NCBI GenBank assembly: GCA_038363925.1
Contig: JAQQWL010000004.1
Span: 1,054,001-1,118,000 of the forward strand
DNA: 64,000 nucleotides
From: Apiospora phragmitis
Taxonomy: Eukaryota > Ascomycota > Sordariomycetes > Amphisphaeriales > Apiosporaceae
Reading direction: 5' to 3'
In this document: positions 26,775 to 60,652 of the stretch, piece after piece
Numbering within the stretch: the first letter of the stretch is position 1
How the letters are laid out: each line of letters starts with the position of its first letter
Program-made: the position numbers and the translations under genes
Notes under the pieces: generated by a model
Told to the model about the DNA's origin: nothing
Database searches by the model: none
What the model saw: the letters and a program-made list of their open reading frames with translations, nothing else

Positions 26775-26776
26775 TA

Positions 26777-28200: not shown

Positions 28201-28269
28201 TAACTATAAATTAAAAGCTAACTAATTTATATACTAATTTATATATGGTGCTATCAAGGGCTATCTAAA

Positions 28270-28317
28270 TTTAAGGGTCGCCGTTACATGAGGTGACCGT
28301 AGCACCGTCAGCTAGCT
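28270..28317 (-). repeat. Terminal inverted repeat, right, of the second pogo-like element
   Basis: AGGGTCGCCGTTACATGAGG then TGACCGTAGCACCGTCAGCT is the inverse of 16910-16960. TA at 28318-28319 is the target duplication. This is the last transposon base before the NRPS gene. Confidence 0.85.
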
Positions 28318-28612: not shown

Positions 28613-31600
28613 TTACATATCCAACGCCGCCGGCGAAGTAGCCGCCCGCCGCAGCGGCTTGATCCCCTCCTCCGCGAGCTTCTCGGCCGCCTCGGCCGCC
28701 TGCAGCGCCTTGGCCGCGCGGTACGCCACGTCCTTGAGCGCCTGCTCGTAGTAGCCGGCGAGCCACTTGCGGATCTGCGGCTGCGCGCGCATGTGCCGGT
28801 TCCAGCCGCACTGGATGTGGAACCGGCCCTCGCGCACCTCGGCGCTGACCGACACCAGGCTGAAACATTTCACCTCCTGGCCGTCCGCGCCCAGGCCGTC
28901 CTCGATGGCCCGGCTCATGTCGAAGAAGCCGCCGCCACCGCCCTCGTTGTCGTTGTCATTGTTGTTGCTGCGCGCCTGGCCGTCCGCGACGCCCAGGTAG
29001 TTGATCGACACCTCCATGCGGTCGTGGCAGGCGAAGGCGGCCCGCCCACCCGGGTGGTAGTACCGCGAGGCGAAGTAGCCGAGGCCGTTCATCGGCAGCT
29101 TCTTGCGCGTCTCGATGCCGCGGCGGAGCACGGCGATGCTGTCGTCGCGGCTGTGGACCGTGATGTGCAGCGGCGACAGGGTGGTGAACCAGCCCACCGT
29201 GCCGGACAGGTCGACGCCGCCGATGCTCTCGCGTCCGTGGTTGTATCGGAAAATGGCGGGTGTGGAGCGGTCGCGGAATATGTAGCTGAAGGCATGGGAC
29301 ATGGCGGAGCTGAGGATGTCCATGGGCTCGGCTCCGTATAGCTTCTGGCACGCCGTCAACAGAGCCTTGGTGTCACGTTCCGGCAGCGTAAAGGAGGAAT
29401 GGTCCGTATCCTTGGCGATATTGATGCGGTTCTCCATCCCCCAGTAAGCGTAGTTGGGCTTGGGGATGCGGACAGGGAGCGCCTTCTCCGGAGGGAAGTT
29501 TCGAATTGTATATTCCTTTTGCTTCTTGACCCAGGCTTGGAAGGGGTACGGTGCATCGGAAGTAAAAGTCGATGTGGCAAGGTATTCTTCCAGATCCTTG
29601 AGGATGGTGTTCCAAGAGACCAAGTCAACGACCAGGTGGTGCGCAACGACGAAGAGGTATTGCTCATTCTCACCGAGTGTCACGAGGTCAGCAGCCATGA
29701 TCGGACCATCCTCCATGTTCAATCTTTGACGCGTTTCCTCGATGCTCGGTTTGACCTCGTCTAGTGAGGTGTCCTCCCCAAGAGCGGAAACGATGCGAGC
29801 CTGCAAGGTCGGGCGAGATGTATTGCTTCCAGCCACAAGGTGCAGTAGTGTCCTTCTGGAAGCGAACGCGAAGCATCGAGTGGCGGTTGATCAAAGCCTG
29901 CAGAGCCTCTTGGGCACGGGCGGCGTCGAGGGGCTTCTTGACCGTCAAGCAGAATGTGTGGTTGAACCTCTTGTTTGTCTCGATGGATAGGTAGTCGTCG
30001 TTCAGAGCGTGGTTTGCATAGTACTGCTGAACTGGCGAGAGGTCAAAGAGCTCTTCAATGGGATCCTCGACAGCACTGACGAGCTGCATCGCCGCCGAGT
30101 CGTCTCGTGCAATGCGGGCGGCAAGTTGGGAGATCGTGCGAGCGCTCGCGACATCTGTCATGGTGACTTGGAACCCTTCGGCCCGCAGCTTGCTAACGAC
30201 CACCATGGCCAAAATGGAGTCGCCCCCAAGAGAAGTGAACTCCTGCCCAACACCGATTTCCTCTACTGGCAGTTTGAGCACCTCGACCCAAACCTTGTGG
30301 ATCTTCTGCTCGGCCAGTGTGGTTGGACCTTGGACTCGGAGGCCATTGGCAAGTGCGCCAATGCTTTGATGAGTGTCGTTATCCATAGAGACGAGCCACT
30401 GCTCCACGCGCCTCCTGTTCAGCTTGCCGCTCGGGAGAAGAGGGAAGCTGCGGATGACAATCCACACTTGAGGAACCATATAGGTAGGAACCAGGGTAGC
30501 GAGGTTGCCGCTGATCAATGCTAGCTCGTCCGCAGCACTAGCAGACTGGGAAGGATCAATCATCTCTACCATAGCATTGGAGTTGGTCGTCGCCCCCAGC
30601 TTGGCAATGGAGACGATACCGACAAGTTGTCGGCGGCATGGTCCGGCCTTGGGGTACATGACCATGGCGTGCTGGATGTTTTTGTTGAGAGTGAGGTGTG
30701 TCTCGATCTCTCCTAACTCCATTCTTTGACCACGGACTTTGACTTGGGTGTCTTTTCGACCGCAGAACATGATGTAACCGTCGACGTTGAAGTAGGCCAG
30801 ATCACCGGTCTTGTAAAGTCTTCTCGTCTTTCCGTGGACTGTCTTGGCCCATGCGGGGTTCTCAACGAAGACTTCGGCAGTCTTTTCCGGGTTGTCAAGA
30901 TAGCCGCGAGCAACGATGCTGCCTTCGATCAGCAGCTCGCCGATCGTACCGAGAGGCGCAAGCTTGTTGTGGTCTTCGGGGTTTGCAATCCAGCAGATGC
31001 CACCGAGTGCCTTACCAATATTGGCAGGGTCCTCTTCGGGGTTGGTAATACGGTTAGCGGTCGCAGCAATGGTGCATTCCGAGGGGCCGTAACCATTGAT
31101 GAGGGTGACATGTTGAGCCCAAGTCTTGATGTTCTGAGTGATGAGCGCTTCTCCACCCAGAACCAAGGTTTTGAGATGAGGAATGTCGGACGGTTTGATG
31201 AACTTGACGACGGAAGGGGTCAGGAAAGCCCACGTGATGCGGAAGTCATTAATGACATCCACCACACTGCGCTTCTTGATGCGCTCGTTGGGGACACAGA
31301 CACAAGCGCCAACCGTGAGCGCCGTGAGCATCTCCATGACGCTGACATCAAACGAGTACGAGGCACCCTGCAAAACTCTGCTGGACGCTGTCATCCCGGA
31401 GCGGGCGGCCTGCGCCCGAGCACAAGTAAGGAAGGAGTGATGTTCGATGACACAGCCTTTAGGCTTGCCTGTCGAACCTGACGTGAAAATAACGTAGAGA
31501 ACGTTGTGAGGCGTGACTTCGACAGGAGTAACATGCGAAGGGGTAGGGAGAGATTCGATAGAAACATTATCGATGATTAAGACCGGCACGCATGAGTCCC

Positions 31601-34600
31601 TCCAGAGAGGAGCCTGATCGAGGGAAGCTAGGATCACCTTGGCCTTGACTTGGTGGATAATTTCGTTGAGACGAGCCATAGGATAAGCGGGGTCAAGGAA
31701 ACTGTAGTATACCAGCGTTAGAATAACTTGTATGTAAGTGAGGAAAGGGTAGATGACTTACGTAAAAGCGGCGCCAGCCTTCATAATGCCAAGAACAGAG
31801 ACAACTGCCCAGCCGGATTTCTCGAAGCATAGAGGAACAACAGTTTCCGGGCCGAGGCCGAGTGACTTCAGATGATGGGCGAGCTTGGTGGAGAGCTGAT
31901 CCAGTTCCGAATACTTGAAGTCGACATCCCAAGCATTGACGGCCATCGAATCGGAGCGCTGCAAGGCCATCGAGTGGATGACATCGTGCGTGAGGTCGTG
32001 GATATCCTCGGGTAGCTCCTCGTTCATCTCGGCCATCTCGGCCATGTCTTCCGGACTTACGATATCAATGTCGCGGACAAGCATGTCGGGTTCTTCCGAG
32101 AGTTGCTGCACCGCGGTTCGCAATTGGAACAGGAGCCGGCTCATCTGGGCCTTGGAAATGAGACGTTGGTCGTACCCTCCCGTGATCTCAATCGACTGCG
32201 TTTGAAGTACGCACTCGAGACCCATGCCGAAACGAAGGAATCCCTTGTCCTCGACGTCGATGCTCTGAGCACCCAGAAAATCAGAGCCAAGTTGGTCGCC
32301 GGGCTGGATGACCATAATGTTCTGGAAAGCACAGGCCTCGCGGCATTCGCTGCTCATCTTGGCAATATGTTGAAGTCCAGTGTGCTCAAAGCGGATCATG
32401 TCGGTCGCTTGATTTTGGACCGTGTCAAGGAACTTGGCCACTGATACCTCGTTGTCAAGCTGGATGCGCAAAGGTACTGTGGTGATGGTAGGTCCAATCA
32501 TGTCGGAAATCCCTTGAATCGGTACGTTACGACCGGTTTGAATGACCCCAAAGAGCGCATCGCTGGCGCCGGTGTACCGTCCCAGGACAATAGCGTAAGC
32601 GGCCTAAATAATATGTGTTAGTCATGGAATTGTAGCAGAGATCATGGGAGTAGTTGAATACCTTTAGGATTGTCCCGAGGGTGAATGAGGAATCCGGTTT
32701 GCGCATAAGAGGAATCTTGACAGTTATGGTCTGGTCAATGATGGGTTCGAAAGAGGCCGAAGGCAATCTCGGGTATGACTGAGCCTCCAGGCCGGAGAAC
32801 TGGGCGGTCCAGTATGCCTTTTCTTCGGATGCGTTTGTCCCTTGAAGATATTTGATGAAGCGGTTGAAGGGGGGACTAATACTCAGCTGGGGCGCCATGC
32901 CCCTGTAGGCTTGCTCCACCTTCTTCATAATGAGAGTCTTTGCCCATCCGTCGTAGAGCGAGTGGTGGATCGACCAGATGAAATAGCATCCAGTGTACTG
33001 CGTCTCGATGATGGCGAATCGCGCAAGAGGGGTGCCGAATTTGAAGTGATGCTGCTTGTCGCCATCTATATACTCTTGCACTTTGGTCGATGTGTGCCAT
33101 TCAATCTGCTGGGCCATAACGACTTGGAAGCACCCCTCCTGACCTAAGCTGACGATTCGTGTTCTGAGCAACTCCACGTCCTGGATAACCTGTTCCCACG
33201 CGGCTTTGAAGCGGGCGATGTCAATCTTGGAGGGTAGTCGGTACACCTCTCGGAGTACATAGGCTAAGTAACAAGGTTAGCGATACGTCACCACATACGT
33301 GATACGGATTCGAGTACCTTCAGGATCTTTGATGGTCAAGAACAACATTCCCTCCTGTAACGGCGTGCAGGGCAATAAGTCAGCGATTGATTGCCTGTCC
33401 AGCCCGTGCTCCTCACTGATTGATTCCAAGGACGTATTCAATTTGGCTTTGGGCACGAGAGAAAAGGGCACAACAGCCTTCGGATGAACACACGATCCGG
33501 AATGGACGCCTTGTTGTATATTAGCGGCGATACCAGCAATAGTCTTGTGGCGGAAGATGTCCTCGGTCGACAAGCTAATGCCAGAGTTTCGTGCCGCAGC
33601 AACAAGTTGAATAGCCGTGATGGAGTCTCCACCGAGGCGAAAGAAGTTGTCATTGACATGTATGGCGGCGGGATCTTTCGCTAGCGTGCGTGCGACCAGA
33701 TCGAGGATAGTCTTCTCGATGTCGGTCGAGGCTTCTCGCGGGGTGGCCAGAGACTCAGCAGCCTCCAGTGAGTACATCATCACTTGCTCCGCATCTAGAC
33801 CATCAAATAGTGACTTGAGGTATTTGCGGTCGGTTTTACCACTAGCGGCCATGATAGGCATCTTGGAGACTGGGATCCAGAGGCTGGGAACCATATATCT
33901 GGGGAGAGTCGCCCGCATTGCGCTGTCAAGGTCCTGGAATCTGGCACGGAGATCATCGTCCATTTCCATAATCATACCAGGCATTGGCTCCGAGCCATCC
34001 TGGAATTCGATGAAAGCAGCTAATGTCTGCTTGGACTTATCAACCTTGGTCTTGCCGGCCAAGACGATGGCCGATTCGACGTCAGCGCCCTTGAGTTTGA
34101 GCTGTGTCTCAATTTCACCTACAGCACTGTTAGATGAATTCTCAATCTCGCAGATACAATTCACTTACCAAGCTCCAATCGCTGGCCGTTAACCTTAGTC
34201 TGGTTGTCTTTTCGCCCAAGATATGTGAGGGTGCCATCGATAACGTCCTGGCGAACCAAATCACCTGTCTTGTAGAGCAGCTCAGGCTTCGTGTGGCCAA
34301 AGCCCCGAAGCCATTTGGGGTTACTGATGAACACCTCAGAAGTCTTTTCCGGGTTCTTGAGATAACCACGGGTAACGTTGGGCCCCTGGATGAGAAGTTC
34401 GCCGACACAGCCAACTGGGCTGAGGCGCTCATGATTGTTGGGATCTACCACCCAGCCAATGGAGCTCACGGGATGACCAATAGTCTCAGCCTTGTGACGA
34501 CGCTCGTCTTGCTCGTTGGGACCAGGAATATTGTGCGTGACTGTGAAGACACATGTCTCAGTAGGTCCGTACCCGTTCATCAATCGGACCTTGTCGCCCC

Positions 34601-37600
34601 ATACATCAATGCACTCCTGGTTGAGCGCCTCGCCACCGAGAACGACCGTAGTCATGGATGGGATATCCTCAGGCTTCAGAAGACGAACGAAGGAAGGCGT
34701 GAAGAAAGCCCAGTCACACTTGAAGTCTCGGATGAATTGAGCGAGATCGTTCATTCGTTCATGCTCGGTAGGAATGCAAATGCAACCTCCAAAATGAAGC
34801 GCTGTGAATATCTCGGCAATACAGGCATCGAAAGTATATGATGCGAACTGGAGAGTTTTCTTTGGGTGATCGGCGAATCCCATGGCTATGCCATGTCCAT
34901 ATGTCGATGATGCGACCGAGAGATGATGGACTGCGACAGCCTTGGGGCGTCCGGTTGAGCCTGATGTGAAAAGGGCATAAGCAAGGTTCGATGGTGTAGC
35001 TTTAGAAACAACCGGATCCGACTTCAGAGGGCCCCAAGCAGTGATCGCACTAGGGAGAATGATGGACGTGATCTTATCGGCCGGATCAAGGGCGGGAATC
35101 AGGTGCTTGGTCTGCTCAGAGAAGATGACGACCTTGGCTTCAACCTGGTCGATTAGATCTAATAGGCGATCAACTGGGTTCTGGGGATCCAGGGGAACAA
35201 AAGCTCCACCACTCTTGAGGATAGATATCATGGACAACACAGCCTCAGGAGACTTCTCAATGCAAATGGGCACGACATTTTCGGGTCCAATACCGAGGGC
35301 TTGGATATCGTGAGCCAGGTGGTTGGTGAGGTCATCGAGCTCTTTGTAGGATAATTCCACGTCCCTGGAGGCGATGGCAAGGGCGTCCGGGGTGGCAGCG
35401 GCTTGCTTCACTATGATATCGTGCATGGTCTGGCGGATAGTCTTGGGGTAGTTGCCATTCCAAGCGCTGAGATCCTGTCGGTCTGCTGAACAGAACATCT
35501 CCATGTCTTCCAACTTGCTATTGCGGCGGTCTTGGAGTTGATACAGCAAGTGCTCTAGTTGCTGAAGAAGTCTTTCGATTTGAGCGGAGGTTATGGCTGC
35601 AGAGTCATGGTGGGCCGAAAATGAGATTTCGCCGTCACCAAGGGCACACTCGAGCACCAAAGCAAAACCACTGAGGTAATCGGCAGTGGTTGCAGTGTTG
35701 TGGTTTCGGAAAAGTGACGATGGCTGCTCACCCAACTCTCCTGGTTGGATGACGATGAGATTTTGGAATTCGCAAGCGTCTCTAGTTGCTTCACTGATTC
35801 TCTTAATTCTTTGCAGACCAACATGGGAGAACTTGACCATGTCGGCGCTCTGAGACTGAATCTTAGAGATGAAGCCCTTCATCGTGAGCTGCGGGTCGGC
35901 CCTGATGCGAACAGGGACGGTGTTGATCGTGGGGCCATTCATGATATCGATGCCTTCCAGATCCAGGTCACGCCCAGATTGGGTGACGCCGAAGACGACA
36001 TCCTTTGAGTCCGACATTCTGGACACTGCAATACTCCAAGCTGCCTTCAGTAGACTTGTCATGGTAAATCCGGCCTTTCGGTCGAACGAGAATGGCATTG
36101 AGTGGGTGACCGTGTTATCAGCTTGCGACCGATGGCCGGCTGACACGGCAGGGAAAGGAGCCGTCTCCAAGTCCTTGAGCTGTGCCTGCCAAAACGCATC
36201 CGTAGATGCGGCATCGATTTGCTGCAGATGCCGAATGTATTCTCGAAAAGGGCGCGTAGGGGACATTGTGGTCCCAGCATAAACCTGGTCGACAGCTGTC
36301 AGGGTTAGGTCCATGGAGTAGCCGTCGTAGAGAGCGTGGTGGAGAGTCCAGACAAAACTCCTGGTAGACCCATCTTGAACAATAGCGTATCGGGCAAGAG
36401 CAGTTCCGTAGCCCATAGGCTCAGATCTGTCGTTCGCCAGGTAGGCCTCCAAATCGGTGGCCGTCTTCCACTGTATGGATTCGTCACGTACAACTTGGCA
36501 TGAACCAATACCGTCCAGGAAGACGACCCTGGTGCGCAGTATATCATACTCGCCGACAATGGCCTCCCAAGCAGCTTTGAAAGCTTCCAAGTCGGTATCC
36601 GCTGGTAGCTCATAAACATCTCTTAGAACGTAAGAGTTCCCATCGGACGCGGTCAGGGAGATGAGACCCTCCTGCAATGCAGTAGTGGGATATGCATCCA
36701 AAACACTCAGGGGATCCCAGCCATGCTTATCAGCAAGTACTTTCAAGATCTGTTCCCCGGAGAGCTCCCCAGTTAGCATCTGGAATGGTCGGTACACTGC
36801 GTTGTCTTTGGGTCCCTGAGAGGGCGGAACTGATGACGCCGTGATGGGCCGCGAGGAAGGGCTTGAAGGGTGTTGGATGTTTGACTTCCGCGTCGGGGTT
36901 GTGTCTGACAAAGGAGTGAGGGTTCTATCCTCTGGCTCTGAGTCTGACTCTGATGGTGAAGTCAAGTCGGTGAGAGGTTGAGACACATTCTGTGGGACAA
37001 CCAGATCGATACCGGGAATACGTTTGGCAGCCAGGGCCATGTCGGCAAGCTTTGGGGCCTTCATAATACTAGGCACAGATATAGCAAGCCCAGCGGCTCG
37101 AGCCTTACCAGCCAGTTGCATGGCTGTGATAGAGTCGCCTCCCAAATCGAGAAAGCTATCGGTCGGGCTGATGGGATCTTTGTTGACATCGATGTGGAGG
37201 ACAGTAGCCCATAAATCAGCAAGGATCGCCTCGATATTCGTTGAAAATGCAGCTACGGCTGTGTCTTTGGGTGTATGGGCCAAAGAGTACAGGTTCAGCT
37301 GCGCACGATCGAAAGAAGCAGCAGCTTCGCGCAGTTTCTTCCTGTCAATTTTGCCCGAGGTGTTGATTGGCAGGCTGAAAACAGGAACCCATAGGGCAGG
37401 GACCATGTACTCGGGCATCTTTTGGGAGATCTTGGTCTTGAAACTCTCCAAATCGGCACGAAGAGCATCAGACATCGCCATTACGGAAAGATCACTGGCC
37501 TTCACGTCTTGGAATTGGACGAAGGCCGCCAGTAGCTTGCGATTGGCCGATGCTCTAGGGGAGAAGACTTCGACGGCGACCTGCGCGGACTCCGGTGTAC

Positions 37601-40600
37601 GCAGCTGCTTCGTGATGTTGTACTCGATTTCTCCCAACTCTATGCGCTGACCATTAAGCTTGACCTGGTTGTCACGCCGTCCCAGGCAGTCAAGACTGCC
37701 ATCAGGATTGAACTTGGCAATGTCACCAGTCCTGTAAAATCGTCGTGGTTCACTAAGCGACCCCTGGGGAGCCCACGACAGACCGCTGATGAAAGAGACC
37801 TCTGTCTTGGTAGGCTCCTTCAGGTACCCTCGCCCCACGATCGGGCCTTCGATAAGCAGCTCGCCGACTTCGCCGAACGGAAGAAGCTTATTTGGTTCCT
37901 CCAGGTCCACCACCCAAAGCTTGCAGTTTACTGGCCATCCAATGTTGGCACCGGTAGCTTCCCTCTGGAGTGGCTTACTGGAAGTGCATTGTATAGAACA
38001 CTCACTCGGGCCGTACGTATTGAAGAGGTCTATCTTCCCACCCCACGATTCGATGATGTCTTTGGTGAGGCTTTCACCACCAAGAACCAGGGTACGAAGA
38101 CAAGGAACATTCTCAGGGTTGAGCATACGACCAACAGTCGGTGTCAAGTCTGCCCAATTCACCCCCATCCGTCGCATGGCACCTGGCAGGTCGTTGAGGC
38201 GTTCTTCATCTGATGGTATACAGACGCATCCACCATACATAGGGATGATGGTGTTCTCCTCAATGGCGACATCGAAGCTGAAACTTGCGAACTGGATTGC
38301 ACGTGTAGAGGGACCAACACTGAGAATCTCCGAGTTCGTCCGGGAGGTGGTACAGAGTGACCGATGCTCCAGTATGGATCCTTTCGGCGTGCCTGTAGAA
38401 CCGGAGGAATAGACTATCCAAGCTGCGTTGGAGGGCGACACGTCGATACGAGTACTTCCTGGTCGAGGTGGCAGGGAATCCAACATCAGCTGGTCGACTG
38501 CGATGACATGGGGGACCAAGTCGATATTGGCAGCATGCTTGCTGGATGCAACGATCACTAGTGCCTCAGTATCGGCAACGATCTTCTCGTGCCGAGCTCG
38601 TGGGTGTGCCATATCTAGCGCGACGCAGCAGCCGCCAGCCTTGAGAATAGCATGGATAGCAATTGTAGCCCAAGCACTCTTTTCGAAGGCGAATGGAACT
38701 ATCTTCTCGGGGCCTATTCCAAGGCCGACAAGAACCCCTGCGAGGCGATCTGAATACTTATTCGCCTGGCAATACGTCAATTGCGCATCCCATGAGTCAA
38801 TCATGAGAGCCTCAGGTTGTCTCCGAGCTTGGTCTTCGATCATCCAGTGCATGCACTGTTCTAGAGGTTCGACGTCAGGATTAAAGCCTGTAGGAACGAG
38901 GAAATCGAGAGGTATATCGATGTCCAGATCTGAAAGACGACGGGTAGCATTTTCGTCATTGATGAGAAGCTTCAAGATGTGTTCCAGTGTCTGGATCAAG
39001 ATGGCAGTCTTCTTGGAACTCAGGAGGTTCTTATCGAACCCAGCGCGGACCTGGACCTCACCCTGACCAAGGATGCATTCTAGTAGTAGGCCGAAGTTGA
39101 GCATGTCCCCAGTGTTGCGCGACTCGTCATGCTGGAAGAGAGTTGAGTTGATTTCGACTGCAGGCTGTACAACAAGGATGTTGTGGAAGGCGATTGCGCC
39201 AGCAGCCTCATCGCTAGCTTTGCGGATGTGTTGCAAGCCTGTTAACTGATAAGGGATCATGTCGAGGTACTGCTTCTGGACTCTAGACAGGAAGGTGGAC
39301 ACGTTCTCATCCTTTTCAATGGAGATTCGAACTGGTACTGTGCCGAGGCATGGACCAAGGCATTCGTGTACGCCAGGAAGTCCCATGTCACGGCCAGACT
39401 GCGTCGAGCCCATGAGAACGTCGTCTGTGTTGCCGACATGGGAGAGCACAAGTGCCCATGCGGCTCGTATGACGATGGATGTGGTGTGCTTGGACGTAGT
39501 GCGTGGCAGACTGATATTCCGAGTGATATAGTTTGTGACTGACGGCTCATACGTATCATCAAACTGGGGAAACAAAGGGGCCTTAAAACCGGCGAACTGT
39601 GATGCCCAAAAGTCTTTGCCGTCCTGGGTGTCCTTGTCCATAAGATACTTGATGAACTGGTTGTACTGCAAGGTATCCGGGAGGGGGTCTTCATTGTAAG
39701 CCATTTCAATCCGGCGAAGAGCGTCTTGGTTCATGTGACCGTCGGTGATGGCATGGTGGACGGTCCATACCAAGTATTGGCTTCCACTGGGCTCCTGGAT
39801 GATGGCGAACCGGTTCAGAGGATCGCCATAACTCATATGATTGCTCTTGTCTCGGGCAAGATAGGCGACCAGATCCTCGTTATGAGCAATATCCGGGAGC
39901 TCATCATCGGTCATGACAACCTGACAAGTCCCCAACCCTTTGATATGAACAATTCTCGTGCGCATAATAGGGTACGCTTCGGCCACCGCCTCAATGGCAC
40001 CCTCTAACGCGGGAATGTCGACGTCATCGGGGAGTTTCAGAACCTCTTGCAGCAGATAAGCTTCCGGTGAATTTATATTCTCGGCCATCATGCCTTCGAC
40101 AGTAGCCGTGGTAGGGTATACATCTTCCACCCTACCAACGGGTATGCGATACGTCTTTTTGAGTAGATCACGGATAGAGCGAAATGTACTGGGACCTCCG
40201 ATAAGCTCGAAAGGGTCAATATCATCAAGTTGATGACAAGACGTCGCAGCGTCAGTTCCTGTGATTACTTGGGCCAACTCGGCCAAGCTCGAGTGCTGGA
40301 AGATGTCTGCGACAGTGAGATGAAAGTTGTGATTGGCAGCTTCAGAAACCAGTCTCATGGCCGAGACCGAATCCCCACCGAGGGAGAAGAAGCCATCTTG
40401 CCGATGGATGGAGTCTTGTGGAATGCGAAGAATAGAAGCCCAAATGTTACTCAGTGCTACCTCGACTTCCCCGAAGGGCTCTTCCACACGGCCATCATTC
40501 TGGAATGTGGATCCGGTAAACTGATTGAGTTTGTCTATTGGTAAGGCCTTTGCGAAGGCTTGAAGACCCTTCCGGTTGGTTTTGCCTGTTGACCCCAAAG

Positions 40601-47315: not shown

Positions 47316-47799
47316 CGTTGGTTTGCTTTCGATTATCTCTACATGTAACCCCAACATTTCTTTTCCGCGCTCGTTTCAATCTGGTGGAGGGTTGTGCATA
47401 CCAACCAAGGAGTCGGGGGATCTAGTTTGAATTTTATGCAAAATGGTAACTCTCTCTACTACGAGAGTCTCGGGATTGTTTCTAGATTTACATACATACA
47501 TACTTAGCAACAAATCCACTATTATATTTTACTATTACCAAAAGGCAATTACTCCGCCTGTCGTTGAACATTGGAGACCTGTTGAACAAAAATGCAGTCG
47601 TGAGCCGACATTTACATATGGGCTTTTTATAATATGTCTGTATTCCAAATCAACCATAATCTATCTAGCCTATTTATTACGAGTGCCTCGTCACCGTATT
47701 CTCAATTAATTTGCGCGGTCCGTTATCCTAGCAGTTGAGGCATCTACTCAACACCTCATAGTCCTTCTACGTGACTAATTAAATCAGATAGACACACAT
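47316..47799. other. Convergent 3' intergenic region
   Basis: This 484-bp gap lies between the MFS stop and the stop of the minus-strand thioesterase-like gene. It is moderately AT-rich from 47500 on, as expected for two 3' untranslated regions. I see no gene or repeat in it. Confidence 0.5.
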
Positions 47800-50230: not shown

Positions 50231-53200
50231 TCACCGCCGCCGCAAAAGCGTCTCCTCCAAATCCTCATCCCGATAATGACTCTTCTCCTTAACCTGCACC
50301 AACCCCACCCCACCGTAAACCGCATCCTGTAGCCGGCGGTTCGCAGCCGCCATGCGCTCCGCGACCCGCGCGCGATACGCCTCGTACGCCTCCCTCCGAT
50401 CGGCCGCGCCAAACGCGGCGGCGAGCACGTACTTGGCGTGCACGCCGATGACCTGCGCCCCCTTCTGCCCGAACCCGAACGAAGTGACCGAGAAGGCCTT
50501 GACGTCGCCCAGCGGGTGCCGGTACGTCTGGCTCGGGAAGAACAGCAAGTCGCGGTCCCGGAGCTCGGCGTCGATGTTGTCGGCGTTGCGGTTTCCCGGG
50601 ATCAGGCCCGACGCGAGCATCTGCAGGCTCGCGTTGACGGCGAAGGCGCCCGCGGCGCCCTTGCCGTGGCCCAGCAGGCTCTTCTGCAGCACGCAGGGCA
50701 GGACGTTGCCCTTGGTCCTTCCTAAGTGCGCCAGCTGGCTCTGGAGCACGGCCGTCTCGTTGACGTCGTTCTTCTTGGTGCTCGTCCCGTGCAGGTTCGC
50801 GACGTCGAGGTCGTCGATCGTAAGGCCCCAGGTCGCGAGCGCGCCGCGCAGGGGCGAGATCGAGGGCTCGTGCCGCCAGAAGTCGTTGCCGTACATGTTG
50901 CGCACCTCGCGTATGGCGCGCTCGGCGTCCGCTTGGATCTCTCGCCGGTACTCCTCGGCGTACTGCTCGGCGTGTGCCCCGCTTAACTGCTGGTCGAACT
51001 TGGGGTTTTTCGGCCCACCTCCCTGTTCGGTGCTAAAGCTGCCCTTCTCTAGAGCAACAAGGCGTCCCTGCAGCCAGCCCAGTTCCAGCTTGCGCTTCTT
51101 CTCGATCTGGCGCGTGCGATGAAGCAGACGCTGGCGTCGGTGGCTGATGTCCAGCATGCGAGATGGGATGGTAGAAGACTGTTTCCGTTCAGCTGCAATG
51201 GTCAGCACGCCCTTGCCCGGTGCAGGAACGGAGCGCCCGATCTTGTCCGACGCAGTATGGGTCAGAGCAATGATACCGCGGATAGGAAGGCCCATATCCA
51301 ATGCGAGTTGAGCTGTGGTCAATAATTGGATACCGGCACCCTCGCCTTCAACAAACCCGGCCCTCGTAGTGGTGGTTGGGCGAGAAGCTTCCTTCGGAGT
51401 GCGGCCAGTCGCTGCATCTTTGTCCAAGTCAATCGTAGCTTGCATATTGGCAAATTCTGTTTGCTGGTTAGTGTTCTTCGTTTCAAGCAACGGTGGAAGG
51501 AGGAACAAAGACTTACCAGCTGCAATGTCTCGTTCGAGAGCGTCAGTGCCACCCACGAGAACAGCCTTGGCCTTGCCAGTGATGATGAGGTCGTATCCCG
51601 TGTCTATACTTTCGAGTGATGTAGCGCAGGCGCCAACGGGAGTACGAATAGGTCCCGAAGAGCCAAGCAGAAGCATATTGATCCAAGCGGCCGTGGTGTT
51701 GACGAAGGTCTCAGCTAAGATATCCTTTTGCACCTGGCGATCCAGATATCTCCGCTTGAACATCTCATGTAGCGACTTCAGGCCACCAAGTGAAGCGCCA
51801 ACAGCATTGCCGAGCTCCGATACATGTACGTGATCATACAACTCATATGGGTCGGTAATACCCGCACTAAGGAATGCCTCAACTGTTGCCACTAGAGCAT
51901 AGAGTGTAATAGGATCCACCTGAGTGATAATGTCTTCCGGTATACCATAAGCGCGAGGGTTCCAGCCAGCAGGAACCTGAGCTCCAACAGCGTTGCGGAA
52001 ATGGAAGGCTTTGGGGATCAAGAGAGTGGTCCCGGCCTTCAGAGTCGCCGAGAACTGCCCATCTTCTTTCTCTGTTATGACCACATTATCGCCATGCTCG
52101 CGCTTCAAGTCTTGAGCCGTCTCGAGTGACACGTCAAACGGCGCCAGATCCTCGGTGACAGCGATTTCGTGTAACGTCTGCTCTTGATCAGGAGCTGTAA
52201 GATCGTGCTCCTGCTTCTCAATGATGCGAATGCCAGTGTGTTCCATGATGTAGCTCTGGTACTTGGTCTTCACCTCCAAGTCCGTGATGGGGCTCGAGGA
52301 CTCGACGTCAAGCCACCCGCAATAGTCCTTGCCCTTAAGCGGACCGTTGTGGTACTTGATAAGACCCATGATCCAGGCAAGCTCAACACACCCATCAACA
52401 GAGAATGTGTCGCTACACTCAGCTTCCCAACGGGTACGCGCACTTCCACAAGGACCTGTTGTATCCGTTAGTCAGCGATCTAGACAATGCCTTGGTATCA
52501 ATGGGGTACTTACTGATCTCGCCGAATCCGACAGCGACAACGATGCGATCCAAGTTCACCATACCCTGCAACTTGGCACCTAAGGATTCGATTTCACTCC
52601 ACTCAGGCAACGCCGCATCCTGAACCTGAATCTTGGCCTTCTTGGCGAGCTTCCGGGCCACAGGCACCGCGACACCACACGACTTCTTCTCCTGCGCGTC
52701 CTCTCGGGCGATTGCCTTCTTCGTGTCGCTCTTGGAGTTGATCCGCTCCTGGATCTGGTCCAGCACCGGCTTGAGGCTCATCGTGGCCGACAGGCCGCCC
52801 GTCAGGTCCGCCATGAGCGGCTCCAGCTCGCAGAACGCGGCGACGCTGTCGTCCATGAGGCCCGTGATGTGCCAGGCCATCTCGGGCGCCGAGAAGGTGC
52901 GGACACCCAGGTCGGCCTCGATGCCCGTGGCCAGGACATCGTTGTTGCTCATCAGGCCCGTGCCCCGCGTCCAGCCGATGACGGTGCCGCAGAGCGTGAT
53001 GTAGTCGCTCCAGTCCTCGGACCACCACTTGTTCAGCAGGGCCTCGAGCCCGATCTTCGACTCTGCATAGAGGCCGTCCTGGCCAAAGATGCCGTGGTTC
53101 GGGGACAAAGGGAGAACCACATGTGTGGGGTGAGTATGGATGCGCCTTGACTCCTTACAGGACTTGATGCATCCGAGGAGGCGGACCAAGTTGGTCAGCA

Positions 53201-55652
53201 TCACTCTGTGTGCCAACTCCGACTTGTCGTCGATTCCATCAACAGCCCGGCCAGCCTCGCCGAGGGCCGCGAAGGGAATGACGTGGTCTAAATCCCAACC
53301 TATCCCGCCTTTGGACTCGTCGTCATAGATGTATTGGATCAGATTCTGCGTATCTTGGTGACTCCCGCCATTGAAGGGTGCGACGACTAGCTGTGACTCT
53401 CGAGCACCATGCCGGCGGTAAATACTCTGGTAGTAGTCGCACGTCTCTTTCGAGTAGGAGCTGGTGGTCACAATAACCTTGGCGCCAGCAGCAAGACACA
53501 TAGACAGAATCTCCGCACCAATCGAATCTCTGCCCGCACCCGTAATTAAGATGACTTTATCGTGGAACGATATGCCGTCCCTCGCCGCGCGCTGGAACCA
53601 TTTGAGGTAAACCGTGGTGATATCATCGTTGCGACGCCATCCGCTGCGGCCTTTGCTCTGAAGCTCCGGCACCCATCTCAGACCCGCGCCCACATGGACG
53701 GTTCCACCTTCGGACTCCACGCCATCAAAGGCAATGGAATCTGAATAGCCCGAAGTGATCAAGGTTTCCGCGCCATATGTAGGCCGCTCGTGGCGGCAAC
53801 TGAAAACCGCTTCGGACTCCGATGGGTCGAAGTCTGTCGACAGGGATGATATAGGGGATGCATCGTCTAGCTCATCCGGCGATCGAACGGATACACAATC
53901 TGAGGTGCCTCGGGAAACTCGCGGATATTGATCGACACTGACGTTGCCTTTCTCATCAACTCTCAGGACTGGGACCATAGAGCATATGGAGTACTTGAAG
54001 ATTGGCTCGTCCCTCGAAATAGATGCATTGCAGGTCTGCTGCAAATCTTCAAGCCACTCCCTGGTCGCCTCCCTCCTAGGCGACTCTGGAAGATTTTTGA
54101 CTTGGTGGATCATATGGTTGATTGCGTCGAGAAGCTGAGTAGTGACCCTGATGGGGAAAAGTGCCAGTCTCTCCCTGAGAACAGACTCGAAATCATCTGC
54201 GGCACCATTGACAGAAGATGAAACCAGGGCGAGAAGGTCTTGGACAGCCCAATTCCAGTAGGAATTGAACAGACGCACTTTCTTGGCGTCAAACTTGGGT
54301 GAAATGCCTCGCTCGTAGGCTTCGCCGTGCTCAGCTGCCCAAGCATCCATCTTTTCTTGCATCTTTTCGATGACAGACTTGGCTTTCTTGGCTTCGATAT
54401 CGGCGTCGTTCAGGTCGTGACCAACACGCTTAGCGTATATGTTGAGCAAGGCACGATCCTGGTTCCGATGCTCATTCTGGAGAGCATCCAGAGCTTCCGA
54501 CGACACATTCACAGTGGTCGATGACGTTGACTGGCTACCCATTGACAGAGCTTGGGGATCAACACCGATACTGCGCAATACATCTTGAGCAAGACTATCA
54601 AGGAAGGCATGTACCGCCTTCTCGTCCGCTAGCCTCGACGCAGGCTGGCGAGTGATTGCAAGAAGTAATGTCCGATCCTGGAGATCCGACCTAAATGACC
54701 AGCAGCCATCGAGATACTGACGAAGAGTGTTCACACTGGAACCTGCAGGCAATTTGGCAGATGACAACTTTGCGATTAGGGTGTTTGCGCAACCTCCAAG
54801 CTTTGTGCCTAAGCCCGAGTCTGATAGGAGACCTCCCAGATCGGCCAGGGCAATATCTTCTGGCTGATCTGGTAAGGAGCCGAACTCTTTGGTGAGGTCG
54901 CCAATAATCTCATTCTGAACGGTTGAGCGACCTGTGTTTTCGGTAAGCCTCAATAAAGCCAACTGGCATGGAATATGGATTAAAACTCACCACCACATAA
55001 TGCCTTGATCGTTTGAGATACGTCAATCTCAGATGACGCCTTCTTCAATGCCACAGCCACAAGGACAGTAATTGTATCGGTTGGTGTTAGGGGCTTAGGG
55101 GGTAATTCAACTGCAGCTGCGCCCGCAGTTGGTGCCTGCGGTGGTGGGGGCGGCGCTGCCAGAGCTTGCGCAGGAGCCGCACTTGAAGTAGATAATGATG
55201 TTGCTGCTAGCGCCGCGGTAGTAGCGCTAGGTGTTTCCTCTGCTATGTTTCTGTAGTATATGGCATCGGCGTTCTTCTTGTGGCTAAGGAGCTCCCGTCG
55301 AAGGCCAAGAGCGACATCCTGAATGTCGTAATCGGCCTTCATTGTCTTCTTGGCCATGTTGACCAACGTCTCAGCTGGCCCGACTTCGATGAGCCGTTCT
55401 GTGGCCAAATCACACAGGATGGCATCTTGAGTATCAACCCTTCAAATTGTTAGAAATGACTTGGCAGGCCGTCTGGTGGGATCCTATGTTGAGTACAACT
55501 TACCATTTCACGGGCGAACAAAACTGATGTCTGGTAAACTAGGTTAGCTAGAGGCTATGTTAGGGATTGAACACGACATACGCAAGGAGCTCAATAACAA
55601 GGAGCTGCGCAAGCTCCTGTTCGCTGGCTGTGTATTCCCTTTCGCAGGACAT
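50231..55652 (-). CDS. Fatty-acid-synthase alpha subunit, pathway-specific (ACP-KR-KS, no PPTase)
   Basis: This is a cytosolic type I FAS alpha chain that would work with a beta chain to build a short or medium fatty acyl precursor. I infer six exons (55652-55582, 55530-55504, 55439-54991, 54931-52514, 52455-51517, 51456-50231), giving 1709 residues. The start at 55652 gives MSCEREYTASEQELAQLLVI, as in FAS alpha N-termini; an upstream in-frame Met at 55775 is less typical. The short second exon restores the conserved LLAHQFCSPVKW. Residues about 140-215 are the acyl carrier domain (phosphopantetheine Ser in GGRSTVQNEI) after an Ala/Pro-rich linker. The ketoreductase (about 640-890) has ILITGAG and a YAESK active site. 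The ketosynthase (about 1000-1690) has GACATSLES, HGTSTKKND and GHGKGAAGA. Primary FAS alpha chains are about 1850 residues with a C-terminal PPTase; this one stops after the ketosynthase, like HexA/StcJ. Apicidin and similar clusters also carry a FAS alpha gene. All frames are intact. Confidence 0.9.
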
Positions 55653-56391
55653 ATCGCTTCTGATTGTTTGTCTATAAGCCCCAAGGTGGTGTAAGGAACG
55701 GCCCAGATGCACAACGCTCCGATTATTGAAACAAGGTTGATTGATGTTATGGCTTCGCCGAGAACGAAGTTGCACATATGTTTATCTTGGAAACCGAGAT
55801 ACCGTTAGGCAAAGGAAATGCCAGGCACCAATGCGTTACCATTGATATCAGTTCATGGGTTGGGAATAGTGTCCAGTATAGCCGTTCGCATTCACACCAA
55901 GGAGCTGTATCCCTAGCCTGTCACCACTCAGCCAGTCAAGGGCCATCTGAATCCGAAACAGGAAACAGGGCCCAGAATCATTGGTCCCCCGGAGCTGACT
56001 CACACGTGGTGCCCAGCACTTCGCCAACTGATTGTGTTGTCCAGGCTCGCTTGGGGGATGCTTAGTGCGCTCACTCAGTGGGGCGAGTCCCTGCAAACCC
56101 AAATTGACTGCTTACTATTCTATCGCAACCTTCCGAGGCTTTCTGGCCCCAGTAAGTCAGTAACACATAGCAAAAAGTCGATATGACACCGATGCAATTA
56201 TACGGGAAAGACAGAAAAAATACGATGGTCGTATGGTGTTCAGATAATGGTGCAACTGCCGTAAGTTGCTGGACCATCTCATCGGTTCAGCAGGAAGGTT
56301 TCCCACCCGAGATCTGTTGTCTTAACCCGAGAGAAGAAGTGTTGTGTCTTGGGCTTTCGGGCTTTTAGACAGCATCGCATTAGAAACAGCA
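55653..56391. promoter_or_regulatory. Divergent promoter region between FAS alpha and P450
   Basis: This 739-bp gap lies between two genes transcribed away from each other, so it should hold both promoters and lets both be controlled together. A CACGTG sits at 56003-56008. No exact tox-box (ATCTCNCGNA) was seen; the nearest is a poor match around 56308. Confidence 0.5.
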
Positions 56392-58109
56392 ATGGATTAT
56401 CTCGATAGACTCACCATAGCCTCGGCCCAATTGAGCGGAGCTCAGCTTGCTGTACTGGCTTTCGCTGGTGCTCTCAGCCTGGTAGTGAGTGCCTCAAGAA
56501 TGACCAGTGTAAAGGGTTTACTGACTGGTGCACGACAAAGGTGCTCGCAAAGCTCACGTACTTGGCCTTCTTCCATCCGCTCGCGAAATACCCAGGCCCG
56601 TTCCTTGCCAAGTTCACGGATGCTTACGGCGCCTACCATGGCTGGAAAGGCGACATTCATCTCGACATGTGGCGAGCCCACCAGAAATACGGCGATTATG
56701 TCCGCTATGGGCCCAACAAGCTCATGGTCAACACAGCCGAGGGACTCCGTGACATCTACAACGTCGGTGCTGGATCTAAGTTCATGAAAGCCACGGCCTA
56801 TGCACCCATGGTGCACCGAGCACCAAATACACTCACGATCCGTGGAGGAAAGGATCATGCTCGTCGCCGAAGGATCATGGCCCAAGGCGTGTCCGAGAAA
56901 GCACAAAGGGGTTACGAGCGCCGAATAATGTCGCATATCGATAAGCTCTGCAAAGTCGCATACTCAAGTGAAACTGGATCCGAGCCCATGGATATGTCCA
57001 AATGGTGTAAGTGGTTCCCGGGTGTTGAAGCGAGGAAAGCCCCTGACATGTAATCCTTAGGCAACTACCTTTCGTTCGATATCATGGCCGACGTCGTCTT
57101 CGGAGCGAAGTACAACTTGCTGGAGAATGAACGGTTCCGCTACGTAACCGAAGTCATCGACAAATCCAACGTCCGCATGTCGGCCTTGATCCAGTTCCCG
57201 GACTTCGCCGCGCTCAAGATCGACAAGTACATCTTCCGCGAGGCCATCGTGGCGCGCAACCGGTTCGTCAAGTTCATCATGCGCGTCGTCAAGGACCGCG
57301 TCGAAAAGGGCAAGACGGTCTCCATCGACATCGACTCGCCCACGAGCGCGGACGCCGACGTCTTCGCCAACCTGGCCGCCGCCAAGGACCCCGAGACGGG
57401 CGGCAGCTTCCGCCCCGACGAGATCGCCGCCGAGAGCGCGACGCTGATCGTGGCGGGCTCCGACACCTCGTCGACGGCCATGTGCTCGGTGCTCTTCTAC
57501 CTGGCCGACAACCCGGACGCCTACCACCGGGCTGCGCACGAGGTGCGCAGCAAGTTCGCCAGCGCCCGCGACATCGCCATCGGCGGCCCGCTAGCGTCGT
57601 GCACCTACCTCCGCGCCTGCATCGACGAATCCCTCCGCATCTCGCCCCCGGTCGGCTCGTCGCTGTGGCGCGAGGTCACGGCGGACGGCGGCGTCAGCGT
57701 CGACTCCCTGCACGTGCCCAAGGGCTGCGACGTCGGCGTGCCCATCTACTCGATCCACCACGACCCCAAGTACTTCACGGCGCCCTTCGAGTACAAGCCC
57801 GAGCGCTGGCTGGTGGACGACGGCACGGGGAGTATCGAGCGCGGCAGATCGGTGTTCAACCCGTTCTCCGTGGGCATGCGTGGCTGTCTTGGCAAAGGGC
57901 TGGCGAATACCGAGCTGATGCTGGCAACAGCCACGCTTCTCTACCGCGGCGACTTCAAGCTGGCTTCCGGAAAACTGGGCGATATTGGTCGCGGTTCCCA
58001 GGGCGGGGTATTTGGGCGGCATCGAACTCACGAGTACCAGCTGTATGATCACGTCACCTGCCAGAAACACGGGCCATTCTTGCAGTTCTCGCCGCGGGAT
58101 ACATCTTGA
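56392..58109 (+). CDS. Cytochrome P450 monooxygenase
   Basis: This is a heme-thiolate monooxygenase, anchored to the ER by an N-terminal segment (about residues 14-31, AQLAVLAFAGALSLV). I infer three exons with introns 56485-56540 and 57007-57060; the second junction restores the family pattern WCNYLSFDIMADVVFG. The total is 535 residues, usual for the family. The proline region is KYPGPF. The I-helix is AGSDTSST (about 317), the ExxR motif is ESLR (about 375), a PERW block follows, and the heme loop is FSVGMRGCLGKGLA with the Cys ligand at about 461. In the cluster it is a candidate for oxidising the fatty-acyl chain or the 2-amino acid side chain, as P450s do in apicidin biosynthesis; the substrate is inference. 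It is transcribed away from FAS alpha and toward the regulator. The frame is intact. Confidence 0.92.
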
Positions 58110-59045: not shown

Positions 59046-60652
59046 TTATCGTGAAGCCCCACCACCTGCGCCACGCTCAAGCAAGAGCGCGACCAGGTCC
59101 GTCCGCCCTTCCATCACGGCACATTCCAGCGCAGTGTAGCCCCTATCATCCCGGGCGTTAAGCGCCGCCGCGTCTAGCCTCTGCAGCAGAAGCCGCAGCG
59201 TGTCGACGTGGCCGCCCGCCACGGCGAGGTGCAGCAAGCTGGTCGGCTGTGTCGCTGCTGACGACCCTGCGTTCGTGGCTGCTGCTGGTGCTGGTGCTTG
59301 GTGGTCCGCAGCACCACTTGCGGTCTTATGAATATTGGTAATGAGCATACCGCTGCGGCTCTTGCGGTTGCCGACTTCGTCCTTCTTCTGCTTTTGCCTC
59401 TTCTCCAGGACTGGCGATTTCTCTGGGGAGGGGGCCTCCGTATTGTCGACGCCGAGGACGCGGCAGAGCAGGGTCTGGAGGTCTGGGAATTGGTGGCGTT
59501 CCCAATAGGTGTCATCTTTGGCGATGCGAGTTGCTGTGTATAGCCGGATGGCTTAGCATGCTGGTGTTGCTGGTGATGATGTTGTTGTTGTTGCTGATGC
59601 TGTTGGTGGTGGTGGTGCTGCTGCTGCTGCTGCTGTTGTCGCTGCGATGATTGTGAAGGAGGTCGGGTCGATAATATGGACGGGGATGGTGATGAGAGCT
59701 TGGCCCGCTGCCACACCTGGTCACTCAATTCCGATATTGGTGACGGAAGGTAACCGGGGGCCGTTTCGCTGACTTTCCCACCGTCTGAGGAGAGCCTGAG
59801 CTCCGTATTCAACAGCCTCCCGACCGTTGGCTGGCTTGGCTTGCGCTGGTGGTGCGGGGAGGCTGCCAGGTCCGGCTGTCCGAGGCTCGTGAGAGGAGAG
59901 GGTAACGTCAAGCGCCTGCTCGGTTCCGATCCCATCTGATTGCCGATTTCTTCAAAGGCCATGTTTCGCTGGTTCTGGTGCGGCCAGGGCATTTGATAGG
60001 CCGCTTTGGGGTAGAACATAGATTCGCCCATGGCTCTATTGCTCTGCATCGGATGGTGCTGGTGCGCCAAGGTAGACTGGCCCGGTATTATTATGTCTTG
60101 GCCCTTCGATAGCATCGGCCGCGGCGGTATTATCTGCTGCGGATAGTCGGGGCTCAGCTGGTAATCCGAGTAGCACGCGGCATCGTTCAGGTGCGTCAGA
60201 CTTTCGCCGTTCGCTGCTATGTCCATGCATCCGGCTCTTTCGGGCTCCGTGCTCTCCGGCCAGGCCTGGAAGTATCTCCCGAGCCACTCGGACGTGGCGA
60301 TCGGCGATGCATTCAAGTCGTCCATATGCGCTTCCGAATCCCCCTTCACGCTCGACGTGCTGGAACCAGAGTCTGAGCCGGAGTAATCCTCGTCTTCCTG
60401 TGTCTGGCTCGGAGCTTCTTGTTCCTCTTGTTTTTCTTCTTGCAGTTTCTTGAGTTGGCTCTTCAATTTTTCCACTTCTCTTGTCCTGTCTCTCATATTA
60501 CGCCCTTTGAGAAATCCAAGTTAGTAATGGGAATGATTGGTCCTGATTCAGGGGAGTGAGAACCTACTGTAAGCGCGCTGGGCTAGTCGATTCTGGATTT
60601 TCCGTCGTTCCGAGGCATCAGGGAGGTTCCTCCAATCCTCGTCCGGTTTCAT
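59046..60652 (-). CDS. bANK-type transcription factor (bZIP basic region plus ankyrin repeats), ToxE/Aps2-like, frame uncertain in the middle
   Basis: This is probably the pathway-specific activator in the nucleus. Exon 1 (60652-60568) and an intron at 60505-60567 give the basic region ERRKIQNRLAQRAYR joined to RNMRDRTREVEKL, a classic fungal bZIP basic motif with only a short zipper-like tail. The middle is Ser/Pro/Gln-rich with a Gln/His run (59561-59640). The C-terminus holds about two ankyrin repeats (SLLHLAVAGGHVDTLRLLL and GYTALECAVMEGRTDLVALL). bZIP basic region plus ankyrin repeats without a full zipper is the special architecture of ToxE and the apicidin regulator. The ankyrin part (59046 to about 59550) is in a different frame from the upstream 59560-60504 part. 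Either an intron ends at the CTAAG...ACACAG acceptor near 59537, or the CAG tract changed length. I could not identify a convincing donor. Confidence 0.8.
59561..59640. repeat. CAG/CAC/CAA microsatellite in the regulator gene
   Basis: An imperfect trinucleotide array (TTG, CTG, GTG units on the plus strand) codes for a Gln/His run on the minus strand. It sits immediately before the position where the reading frame of the regulator changes, and such tracts are prone to slippage. Confidence 0.85.

What the first reader, a model, noticed from the sequence alone, without database searches (positions are those of the whole stretch)
28613..60652. Cyclic-tetrapeptide-type cluster: four-module NRPS, FAS alpha, bANK regulator, MFS, P450 and thioesterase-like protein
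Seen: the NRPS has four A domains, the FAS alpha lacks a PPTase, and the regulator combines a bZIP basic region with ankyrin repeats. Known: that regulator architecture plus a dedicated FAS subunit and a four-module NRPS characterises the HC-toxin (TOX2) and apicidin (APS) clusters, whose products are histone-deacetylase inhibitors. Inferred: this window encodes a relative with its own domain order and gene set. The amino-acid branched-chain transaminase, alanine racemase, pyrroline reductase and FAD monooxygenase of known clusters are not present here, so the product would differ or the cluster is split by the transposon block.
Basis: partly seen in the sequence, partly recalled or inferred. 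Interest (0 to 1): 0.88.

Follow-up and report, generated by a model that had tools for sequence, protein, structure and literature searches.

The report
Fatty-acid tetrapeptide cluster, new ending
The reed fungus Apiospora phragmitis carries a gene cluster that pairs an extra fatty-acid synthase with a four-module peptide-making enzyme ending in an amino-acid-flipping domain; it is predicted to make a small peptide that would carry a fatty amino acid, by logic like that of the plant toxin HC-toxin but with a different, still unknown way of letting the product go.

Summary
The window is contig C4 of Apiospora phragmitis: four-module NRPS, divergent MFS, 4HBT protein, FAS-alpha without PPTase, P450, bANK-type regulator. 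Two 'missing' parts lie just past the window's right end: a branched-chain-type aminotransferase (0.6 kb out) and a FAS-beta (3.1 kb out), followed by RAD54. The NRPS is not built like HTS1: no E domain after module 1, no final C domain; it ends T-E. That ending is shared by 20 of the 23 best database hits, from Apiospora to Pestalotiopsis relatives, Chaetomiaceae, Pyricularia and Arachnomyces; in 7 of 11 comparable genomes a same-type FAS-alpha lies on the same contig. The 3' end is natural, not cut by the adjacent AT-rich block. CACGTGG is the only 7-mer found in all six promoter regions examined. Five frame changes without an intron (NRPS, MFS, regulator, FAS-beta twice) look like assembly errors: the genome's C13 FAS-beta has one too. 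Product, release step and HDAC activity are untested. New variant of a known kind.

The parts
1..28500 (.). AT-rich repeat block (RIP-like), left border of the cluster
   Evidence: GC 20-30% over most of it, diverged repeats, TA/AT 1.29-1.38 and (CA+TG)/(AC+GT) 0.17-0.21 against 0.50-0.71 and 1.21-1.31 in four cluster stretches
28613..42867 (-). NRPS gene; domain order (truncated C)-A-T-C-A-T-C-A-T-C-A-T-E; exons 42867-40954, 40904-34169, 34118-33318, 33263-32662, 32603-31762, 31701-28613 (frame change in the last exon)
28700..30084 (-). terminal epimerization (E) domain, borders approximate; frame changes without canonical intron inside 29690-29890
   Evidence: PDB matches are bacitracin, PvdL, gramicidin S and tyrocidine synthetase chains
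34169..35387 (-). third adenylation domain (start and bulk), motif-read pocket code DAAFVGGVFK, candidate for the fatty 2-amino acid
   Evidence: assignment inferred
42868..44579 (.). divergent NRPS/MFS intergenic region; one exact Tox-box (42924-42933) and one Api-box, neither above chance
44580..47315 (+). MFS transporter with a long hydrophilic N-terminus; frame change within 46800-46900
47800..48738 (-). 4HBT_2 thioesterase-like protein, intact ORF
   Evidence: PF13279, 6.3e-9; no PDB relative
50231..55652 (-). FAS alpha subunit, 1729 aa, no PPTase; exons 55652-55582, 55530-55504, 55439-54991, 54931-52514, 52455-50231
56392..58109 (+). cytochrome P450, divergent from FAS alpha
   Evidence: PF00067; start read directly
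59046..60652 (-). bANK-type regulator (basic region, two ankyrin stretches); frame change within 59350-59450, a possible further one just upstream of 60652
62664..63985 (+). RTA1-like membrane protein pieces between the regulator and the aminotransferase outside the window
   Evidence: PF04479 in two of three pieces; membership in the cluster not shown
43874..43880 (+). CACGTGG in the NRPS/MFS region
49634..49640 (+). CACGTGG upstream of the 4HBT gene
56003..56009 (+). CACGTGG in the FAS alpha/P450 region
60894..60900 (-). CACGTGG upstream of the regulator
61678..61684 (-). CACGTGG upstream of the RTA1-like gene (a second, palindromic site at 62360-62367)

Best explanation
This is a gene cluster of Apiospora phragmitis whose four-module NRPS ends in an epimerization domain and sits with an extra fatty-acid synthase pair, an aminotransferase, a P450 and a bANK-type regulator; it is predicted to make a tetrapeptide that would carry one fatty-acid-derived 2-amino acid. 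Likely mechanism, all steps inferred from gene content: FAS alpha/beta would build a medium-chain acid, the P450 would oxidise it, the aminotransferase would turn the 2-oxo acid into a 2-amino acid, and one of the two A domains with open, apolar codes (most likely A3) would load it. The terminal E domain would set the last residue to the D form on its carrier; release would then need a separate enzyme, for which the 4HBT protein is the candidate in the cluster, or self-cyclisation. The MFS protein would export the product, and the regulator would switch the genes on, possibly through CACGTGG sites. It would work like the HC-toxin/apicidin systems in how the unusual building block is supplied, but its NRPS belongs to a different, conserved family.
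For: Gene content and order; aminotransferase and FAS beta just outside the window, RAD54 beyond them; at least three FAS alpha and three FAS beta loci in the genome, so this pair is additional to the one on C13. Terminal E by HMM order and by PDB matches; 20 of the 23 best NRPS hits end T-E. A3 code identical in 14 of 20 family members in which it was read. NRPS and FAS alpha share a contig of identical length in 7 of 11 comparable genomes; identities to the two proteins rank alike in 13 species, Spearman 0.93, which partly reflects species phylogeny. CACGTGG in 6 of 6 promoter regions and the only such 7-mer; 7 CACGTG in 7.0 kb against 8 in 54.4 kb of non-coding background.
Against: No product is known. 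In 4 of 11 comparable genomes NRPS and FAS alpha are on different contigs. The motif was picked after the fact: some 7-mer reaches 6 of 6 in 19 of 300 first-order Markov resamples. A1 and A2 codes look charged, unlike any HC-toxin residue, and the A3/A4 assignments are guesses from pocket size. The 4HBT protein has no PDB relative and could not be folded. Frame changes in four genes could mean decay. Relatives of the regulator were found in Apiospora only, plus one unnamed and one weak Coemansia hit, from a capped list. Whether P450, 4HBT, aminotransferase or FAS beta travel with the NRPS in other genera was not tested.
Confidence: 0.6

Rival explanations
1. A true member of the HC-toxin/apicidin line: a cyclic tetrapeptide histone-deacetylase inhibitor made by an HTS1/APS1-type synthetase with rearranged domains.
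For: Four modules, bANK-type regulator, FAS alpha and beta, aminotransferase, P450, divergent MFS. HTS1 relatives in Setosphaeria turcica and Pyrenophora tritici-repentis also lack the final C domain (PMC3554632, passages).
Against: E is after module 4, none after module 1. The E-domain motif has G, S, D or Q but never R before TVGW in the 20 listed relatives with a T-E ending (own SGTVGWFTT), against the (S/A)RTxGWFT form given for HTS1 and Apf1 (PMC4109984 section 30, part 1). By names shown, no HTS1/APS1-bearing genus among the best 120 NRPS hits apart from an Exserohilum turcicum protein at 35% over 56%, with E after its second A domain. No racemase or pyrroline reductase among the 20 flanking and border ORFs scanned.
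Confidence: 0.2
2. The FAS pair makes an acyl chain that is attached to the peptide's N-terminus, or a separate lipid, rather than a 2-amino acid.
For: FAS-bearing clusters of other kinds exist (alkylcitric acids in A. arundinis, PMC10999098, passages). No A-domain specificity was measured. The NRPS begins with a C-like stretch.
Against: The N-terminal C stretch is truncated and lacks the HHxxxDG half; no acyl-CoA ligase was seen among the cluster and flanking ORFs scanned; a class IV aminotransferase sits beside FAS beta.
Confidence: 0.2
3. The cluster in this strain is decaying: frame changes have already broken the NRPS, transporter, regulator and FAS beta.
For: Five frame changes without canonical introns, and a possible sixth at the regulator's start; a RIP-like block abuts the NRPS.
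Against: The C13 FAS beta, near the C13 FAS alpha and presumably the essential copy, shows the same kind of frame change without room for an intron, and the C10 FAS beta several. Four of five short intervals hold a run of four or more equal bases, against 27% of random stretches. Same-genus relatives have full-length NRPSs. A sister species was sequenced partly by Nanopore (PMC10999098, passages; this assembly's method was not seen). Speaking against assembly error: the C13 FAS alpha reads about 1460 residues in one frame. I lowered this rival from 0.12 to 0.08 after the C13 FAS beta control.
Confidence: 0.08

Closest known systems
TOX2 / HC-toxin cluster (HTS1, TOXA, TOXC, TOXE, TOXF, TOXH) of Cochliobolus carbonum
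   Same: Four-module NRPS; MFS divergently transcribed beside it; FAS beta and alpha; branched-chain-type aminotransferase; bANK-type regulator.
   Different: NRPS has its E domain at the very end and no final C domain; two Pfam ankyrin stretches instead of four repeats; P450, 4HBT and RTA1-like genes present; no alanine racemase or TOXD-type gene seen among the ORFs scanned; NRPS has introns, HTS1 none (PMC3729494, section 7).
APS / APF (apicidin) clusters of Fusarium
   Same: FAS alpha, P450, aminotransferase, bANK-type regulator, MFS, four A domains (PMC4109984 sections 18, 30).
   Different: FAS beta is clustered here but not in APS (PMC3729494); one P450 instead of two; no pyrroline reductase, O-methyltransferase or FAD monooxygenase seen among the ORFs scanned; NRPS architecture differs from the E position reported for HTS1.
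Terminal-E NRPS family of Sordariomycetes (Seiridium, Truncatella, Neopestalotiopsis, Chaetomiaceae, Pyricularia) and Arachnomyces
   Same: Same domain order, A codes nearly identical, 45-64% identity outside Apiospora, same-type FAS alpha often on the same contig.
   Different: No product or function found for it in the papers searched; presence of the regulator and the other genes outside Apiospora not shown.
fg3_54 (fusaoctaxin) cluster with FGM4
   Same: bANK-like pathway regulator beside NRPS genes.
   Different: Linear octapeptide from two NRPSs, C-terminally reduced; no FAS mentioned in the passages seen (PMC6389888).

Membership tests
HC-toxin/apicidin (TOX2/APS) clusters | Single NRPS with four modules | tested here: met
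[quoted passage not shown] E motif in Apf1, PMC4109984) | tested here: not met
   The only E is C-terminal
HC-toxin/apicidin (TOX2/APS) clusters | Final C domain (present in HTS1 and APS1, absent in the S. turcica and P. tritici-repentis relatives, PMC3554632) | tested here: not met
   same C-terminus in relatives
HC-toxin/apicidin (TOX2/APS) clusters | bANK regulator: basic region plus ankyrin repeats | tested here: met
   Basic region read directly, two ankyrin stretches; four repeats in ToxE/Apf2
HC-toxin/apicidin (TOX2/APS) clusters | Regulator orthologous to TOXE/APS2 | tested here: inconclusive
HC-toxin/apicidin (TOX2/APS) clusters | Dedicated FAS subunit(s) | tested here: met
   alpha in window, beta in L025; dedication inferred from extra copies
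HC-toxin/apicidin (TOX2/APS) clusters | Branched-chain-type aminotransferase (TOXF/APS4) | tested here: met
   L025:631-1680 minus
HC-toxin/apicidin (TOX2/APS) clusters | NRPS A and C domains group with HTS1/APS1 | tested here: inconclusive
   HTS1/APS1 not retrievable; not among the best 120 hits by names shown; A domains form their own clades with the terminal-E family; C domains not put in a tree
HC-toxin/apicidin (TOX2/APS) clusters | Tox-box or Api-box in the promoters | tested here: not met
   1 of 6 regions each, not above chance
HC-toxin/apicidin (TOX2/APS) clusters | Product is a cyclic tetrapeptide inhibiting histone deacetylases | not testable with these tools
   chemistry needed
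Terminal-E NRPS/FAS cluster family | C-A-T-C-A-T-C-A-T-C-A-T-E order and conserved A codes | tested here: met
Terminal-E NRPS/FAS cluster family | PPTase-less FAS alpha of one clade on the same contig | tested here: met
   Own window; 7 of 11 comparable genomes; clade support 1.0 among 60 proteins

The most novel reading that the evidence does not exclude
An undescribed, widely conserved class of fungal NRPS/FAS clusters in which the assembly line stops at an epimerization domain and a separate hot-dog-fold (4HBT) thioesterase releases or cyclises the D-terminated, fatty-amino-acid peptide: a trans-release mode for which I know no fungal precedent, feeding the HC-toxin-type building block into a different scaffold in saprobes, endophytes and plant pathogens alike.
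Probability: 0.22. Interest if true: 0.7.

Novelty: new variant of a known kind. Interest (0 to 1): 0.52.

Why it matters
If right, the FAS-aminotransferase supply route behind HC-toxin and apicidin is not tied to one synthetase line; it is also paired, across much of the Sordariomycetes, with a synthetase that ends in E and lacks the usual fungal release domains. That makes two things directly testable: which A domain takes the fatty 2-amino acid, and how a fungal NRPS without a final C, R or TE domain lets its peptide go. It also corrects a habit of reading 'bANK plus FAS plus four-module NRPS' as HC-toxin-like.

Tried and rejected
NRPS truncated by the repeat block: rejected, because relatives end at the same place. 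Cluster split by the block with the missing genes to the left: not needed; nine selected ORFs to the left gave a bromodomain, HET, SET/TPR, a P450 piece, an MFS piece and others without a clear family; the P450 and MFS pieces were not assigned. Tox-box and Api-box enrichment: not above chance. Structure of the 4HBT protein: single-sequence model at mean pLDDT 40, discarded, no fold search made. PDB relatives of the 4HBT protein: none up to E = 1; two weaker paralogues in the genome were not followed. Paper searches for a known product or for terminal-E release in fungi: none seen in the listings (open-licence PMC only, most papers seen as listings). Regulator frame first read as a possible intron; the A. 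rasikravindrae relative reads through that place. Pfam on the MFS C-terminal piece gave no MFS match, so that frame change rests on reading the translation.
Full report
Where it lies. The window is C4:1054001-1118000 of a 52.67 Mb genome in 19 contigs. A. phragmitis PG994_003481 is 100% identical to the regulator piece over 54% of the query, and PG994_003479 is 99% identical to the FAS alpha; both records sit on a contig of 3,139,291 bases, the length of C4. I take the organism to be Apiospora phragmitis.

What is there. Left of about 28.5 kb is an AT-rich, RIP-like repeat block. The NRPS runs on the minus strand from 42867 to 28613, with five introns of canonical form. HMM-based order is (truncated C)-A-T-C-A-T-C-A-T-C-A-T-E. 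The last domain matches bacitracin, PvdL, gramicidin S and tyrocidine synthetase chains in the PDB and carries HHLVVDLVSW and NHGRE; I call it E from the local HMM, these matches and recalled E-domain motifs. The MFS gene is divergent, 1.7 kb away. Then follow the 4HBT protein, FAS alpha, P450, the regulator and an RTA1-like gene.

What lies just outside. The cluster does not stop at the window's end. L025 (C4:1118001-1128000) holds a class IV, branched-chain-type aminotransferase at 631-1680 minus (PF01063 over its cut-off; NCBIfam branched-chain aminotransferases below their cut-offs; PDB 7lv7 at 3.4e-62) and a FAS beta from about 3121 to 9537 plus. RAD54 follows; I take it as the right border. 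The genome has at least three FAS alpha loci (C13, C6, C4) and three FAS beta loci (C13, C4, C10).

The NRPS family. The search scored 2776 candidates, found 1882 hits and listed 120. Of the best 23 (P0014-P0036), 20 end T-E; the other three are two partial proteins (P0029; P0031, too short for my scan) and an Aspergillus protein of another order. Identities: Apiospora 86-89%, Seiridium, Truncatella and Neopestalotiopsis 62-64%, Humicola and other Sordariales 54-59%, Arachnomyces 49%, Pyricularia 45-46%, and Coleophoma (P0034) 37% with different codes, which I treat as an outgroup. All four A domains fall in clades with the same-position domains of this family. The A3 code DAAFVGGVFK is identical in 14 of 20 members where it was read, one step away in four Pyricularia proteins and two steps away in two. 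Code positions were placed by motif from recalled GrsA numbering, not by structure. A1 (DITVVGSSRK) and A2 (DVEDVGTIQK) hold charged residues; A3 and A4 (DVMFVGGIAK) are apolar. Substrate readings are inference. One hit, P0046 of Penicillium digitatum (31%), is named HC-toxin synthetase by its source; it has no E domain in my scan.

Linkage with FAS. The FAS alpha search listed 120 of 1749 hits; 29 (P0134-P0162) lack PF01648 and form one clade with support 1.0 in a tree of the first 60. Thirteen species appear in both lists; two are not comparable because the representative records come from different assemblies (Truncatella angustata, A. arundinis). Of the other 11, seven have NRPS and FAS alpha on contigs of identical length (A. 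hydei, A. saccharicola, Seiridium cupressi, Chaetomidium leptoderma, Chaetomium olivicolor, Dichotomopilus funicola, Arachnomyces PD_36); four do not (Humicola hyalothermophila, Naviculisporaceae PSN 640, Mycothermus thermophilus, Pyricularia CBS 133598), three of these with a contig under 67 kb. In Chaetomium olivicolor and Chaetomidium leptoderma the locus tags differ by three (3721/3724; 33292/33295), which would fit two genes between NRPS and FAS alpha, as here. Contig identity by length is inference, though a strong one. FAS alpha of this clade also occurs in fungi for which no such NRPS was listed (for example Colletotrichum higginsianum), so the link is not strict.

Regulator and promoters. 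The protein has a bZIP-type basic region and two ankyrin stretches. Relatives found: 11 named Apiospora proteins, one unnamed, one weak Coemansia hit, from a capped candidate list. A second, weaker bANK-like locus is on C9. Exact Tox-box and Api-box each occur once in the NRPS/MFS region, not above chance. CACGTGG is the only 7-mer present in all six regions examined (five serving cluster genes, one before the RTA1-like gene, whose membership is open); 7 CACGTG in 7.0 kb against 8 in 54.4 kb of non-coding background; 0 of 5000 random background sets reach 6 of 6. But the motif was found by looking, and some 7-mer reaches 6 of 6 in 19 of 300 first-order Markov resamples. It is a lead for the regulator's site, no more.

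Frame changes. Five places change frame without a canonical intron: NRPS E domain (within 29690-29890), MFS (within 46800-46900), regulator (within 59350-59450) and FAS beta twice; a further one just upstream of the regulator's start is possible. Relatives that read through exist for NRPS and regulator. Four of five short intervals hold a run of four or more equal bases, against 27% of random stretches. The C13 FAS beta, near the C13 FAS alpha, has the same kind of change without room for an intron, and the C10 FAS beta has several; the C13 FAS alpha reads about 1460 residues in one frame up to the end of the fetched stretch.

Comparison with known systems. TOX2 has a four-module NRPS with E between modules 1 and 2, divergent TOXA, TOXC (FAS beta), TOXH (FAS alpha), TOXF and TOXE (PMC3729494: section 7 and part 1 of section 15 seen). 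APF has FAS alpha, aminotransferase, two P450s, bANK and MFS (PMC4109984: sections 18, 22, 23, 28 and part 1 of 30 seen). The supply genes match; the synthetase does not. bANK regulators also serve fusaoctaxin (PMC6389888, passages), so they do not diagnose a cyclic tetrapeptide. Fungal NRPSs mostly release by a final C or R domain, rarely TE, and some end in T (PMC2823734, passages); a final E is not mentioned in what I saw.

How it most likely works. Shown: genes, order, domains, family and frequent linkage of NRPS and FAS alpha. Inferred: acid by FAS, oxidation by P450, amination, loading by A3 (or A4), D-configuration of residue four, release in trans or by self-cyclisation, export, regulation. 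Not shown: product, activity, expression.

Novelty. The papers searched named no product for this family in what I saw: listings for most, passages or sections for six papers. Subscription journals are not held. I file it as a new variant of a known kind: known logic for the building block, a different conserved synthetase, an open release step.

Noticed in passing
G000 C6:2356.8-2364 kb (L029/L030): Another extra FAS alpha with a branched-chain-type aminotransferase about 1 kb downstream of its ORFs, but no NRPS condensation domain nearby.
   Followed up: partly
G000 C9:3392721-3394015: A second bANK-like regulator locus, basic region and ankyrin part, with no condensation-domain hit on that contig.
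   Followed up: no
G000 C10:334k (L034): A third FAS beta with several frame changes and an in-frame stop, on another contig than the lone C6 FAS alpha.
   Followed up: partly
G000 C13:480.6 kb (L033 about 2650-2690): The C13 FAS beta, presumably the essential copy, changes frame without room for an intron, a sign of indel errors in this assembly.
   Followed up: partly
window 1-28500 and L031: RIP-like AT-rich block of repeats in both orientations, reaching at least 4 kb further left and ending within about 200 bases of the NRPS stop codon.
   Followed up: partly
window 44580-45690: The MFS transporter has an unusually long hydrophilic N-terminal extension of about 370 residues before the Pfam MFS domain.
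   Followed up: no
P0003, P0008-P0012: Several annotated Apiospora regulator models carry out-of-frame stretches in the middle, as if annotation had bridged frame changes with false introns (by eye).
   Followed up: no
G000 C7:1240255-1268678 and C15:1100119-1124791: Two very large NRPS loci with many condensation domains each.
   Followed up: no
P0037, P0038, P0039, P0042: Database NRPSs with the order ...A-T-E-C: E after the last T as here, but with a further C domain behind it.
   Followed up: no
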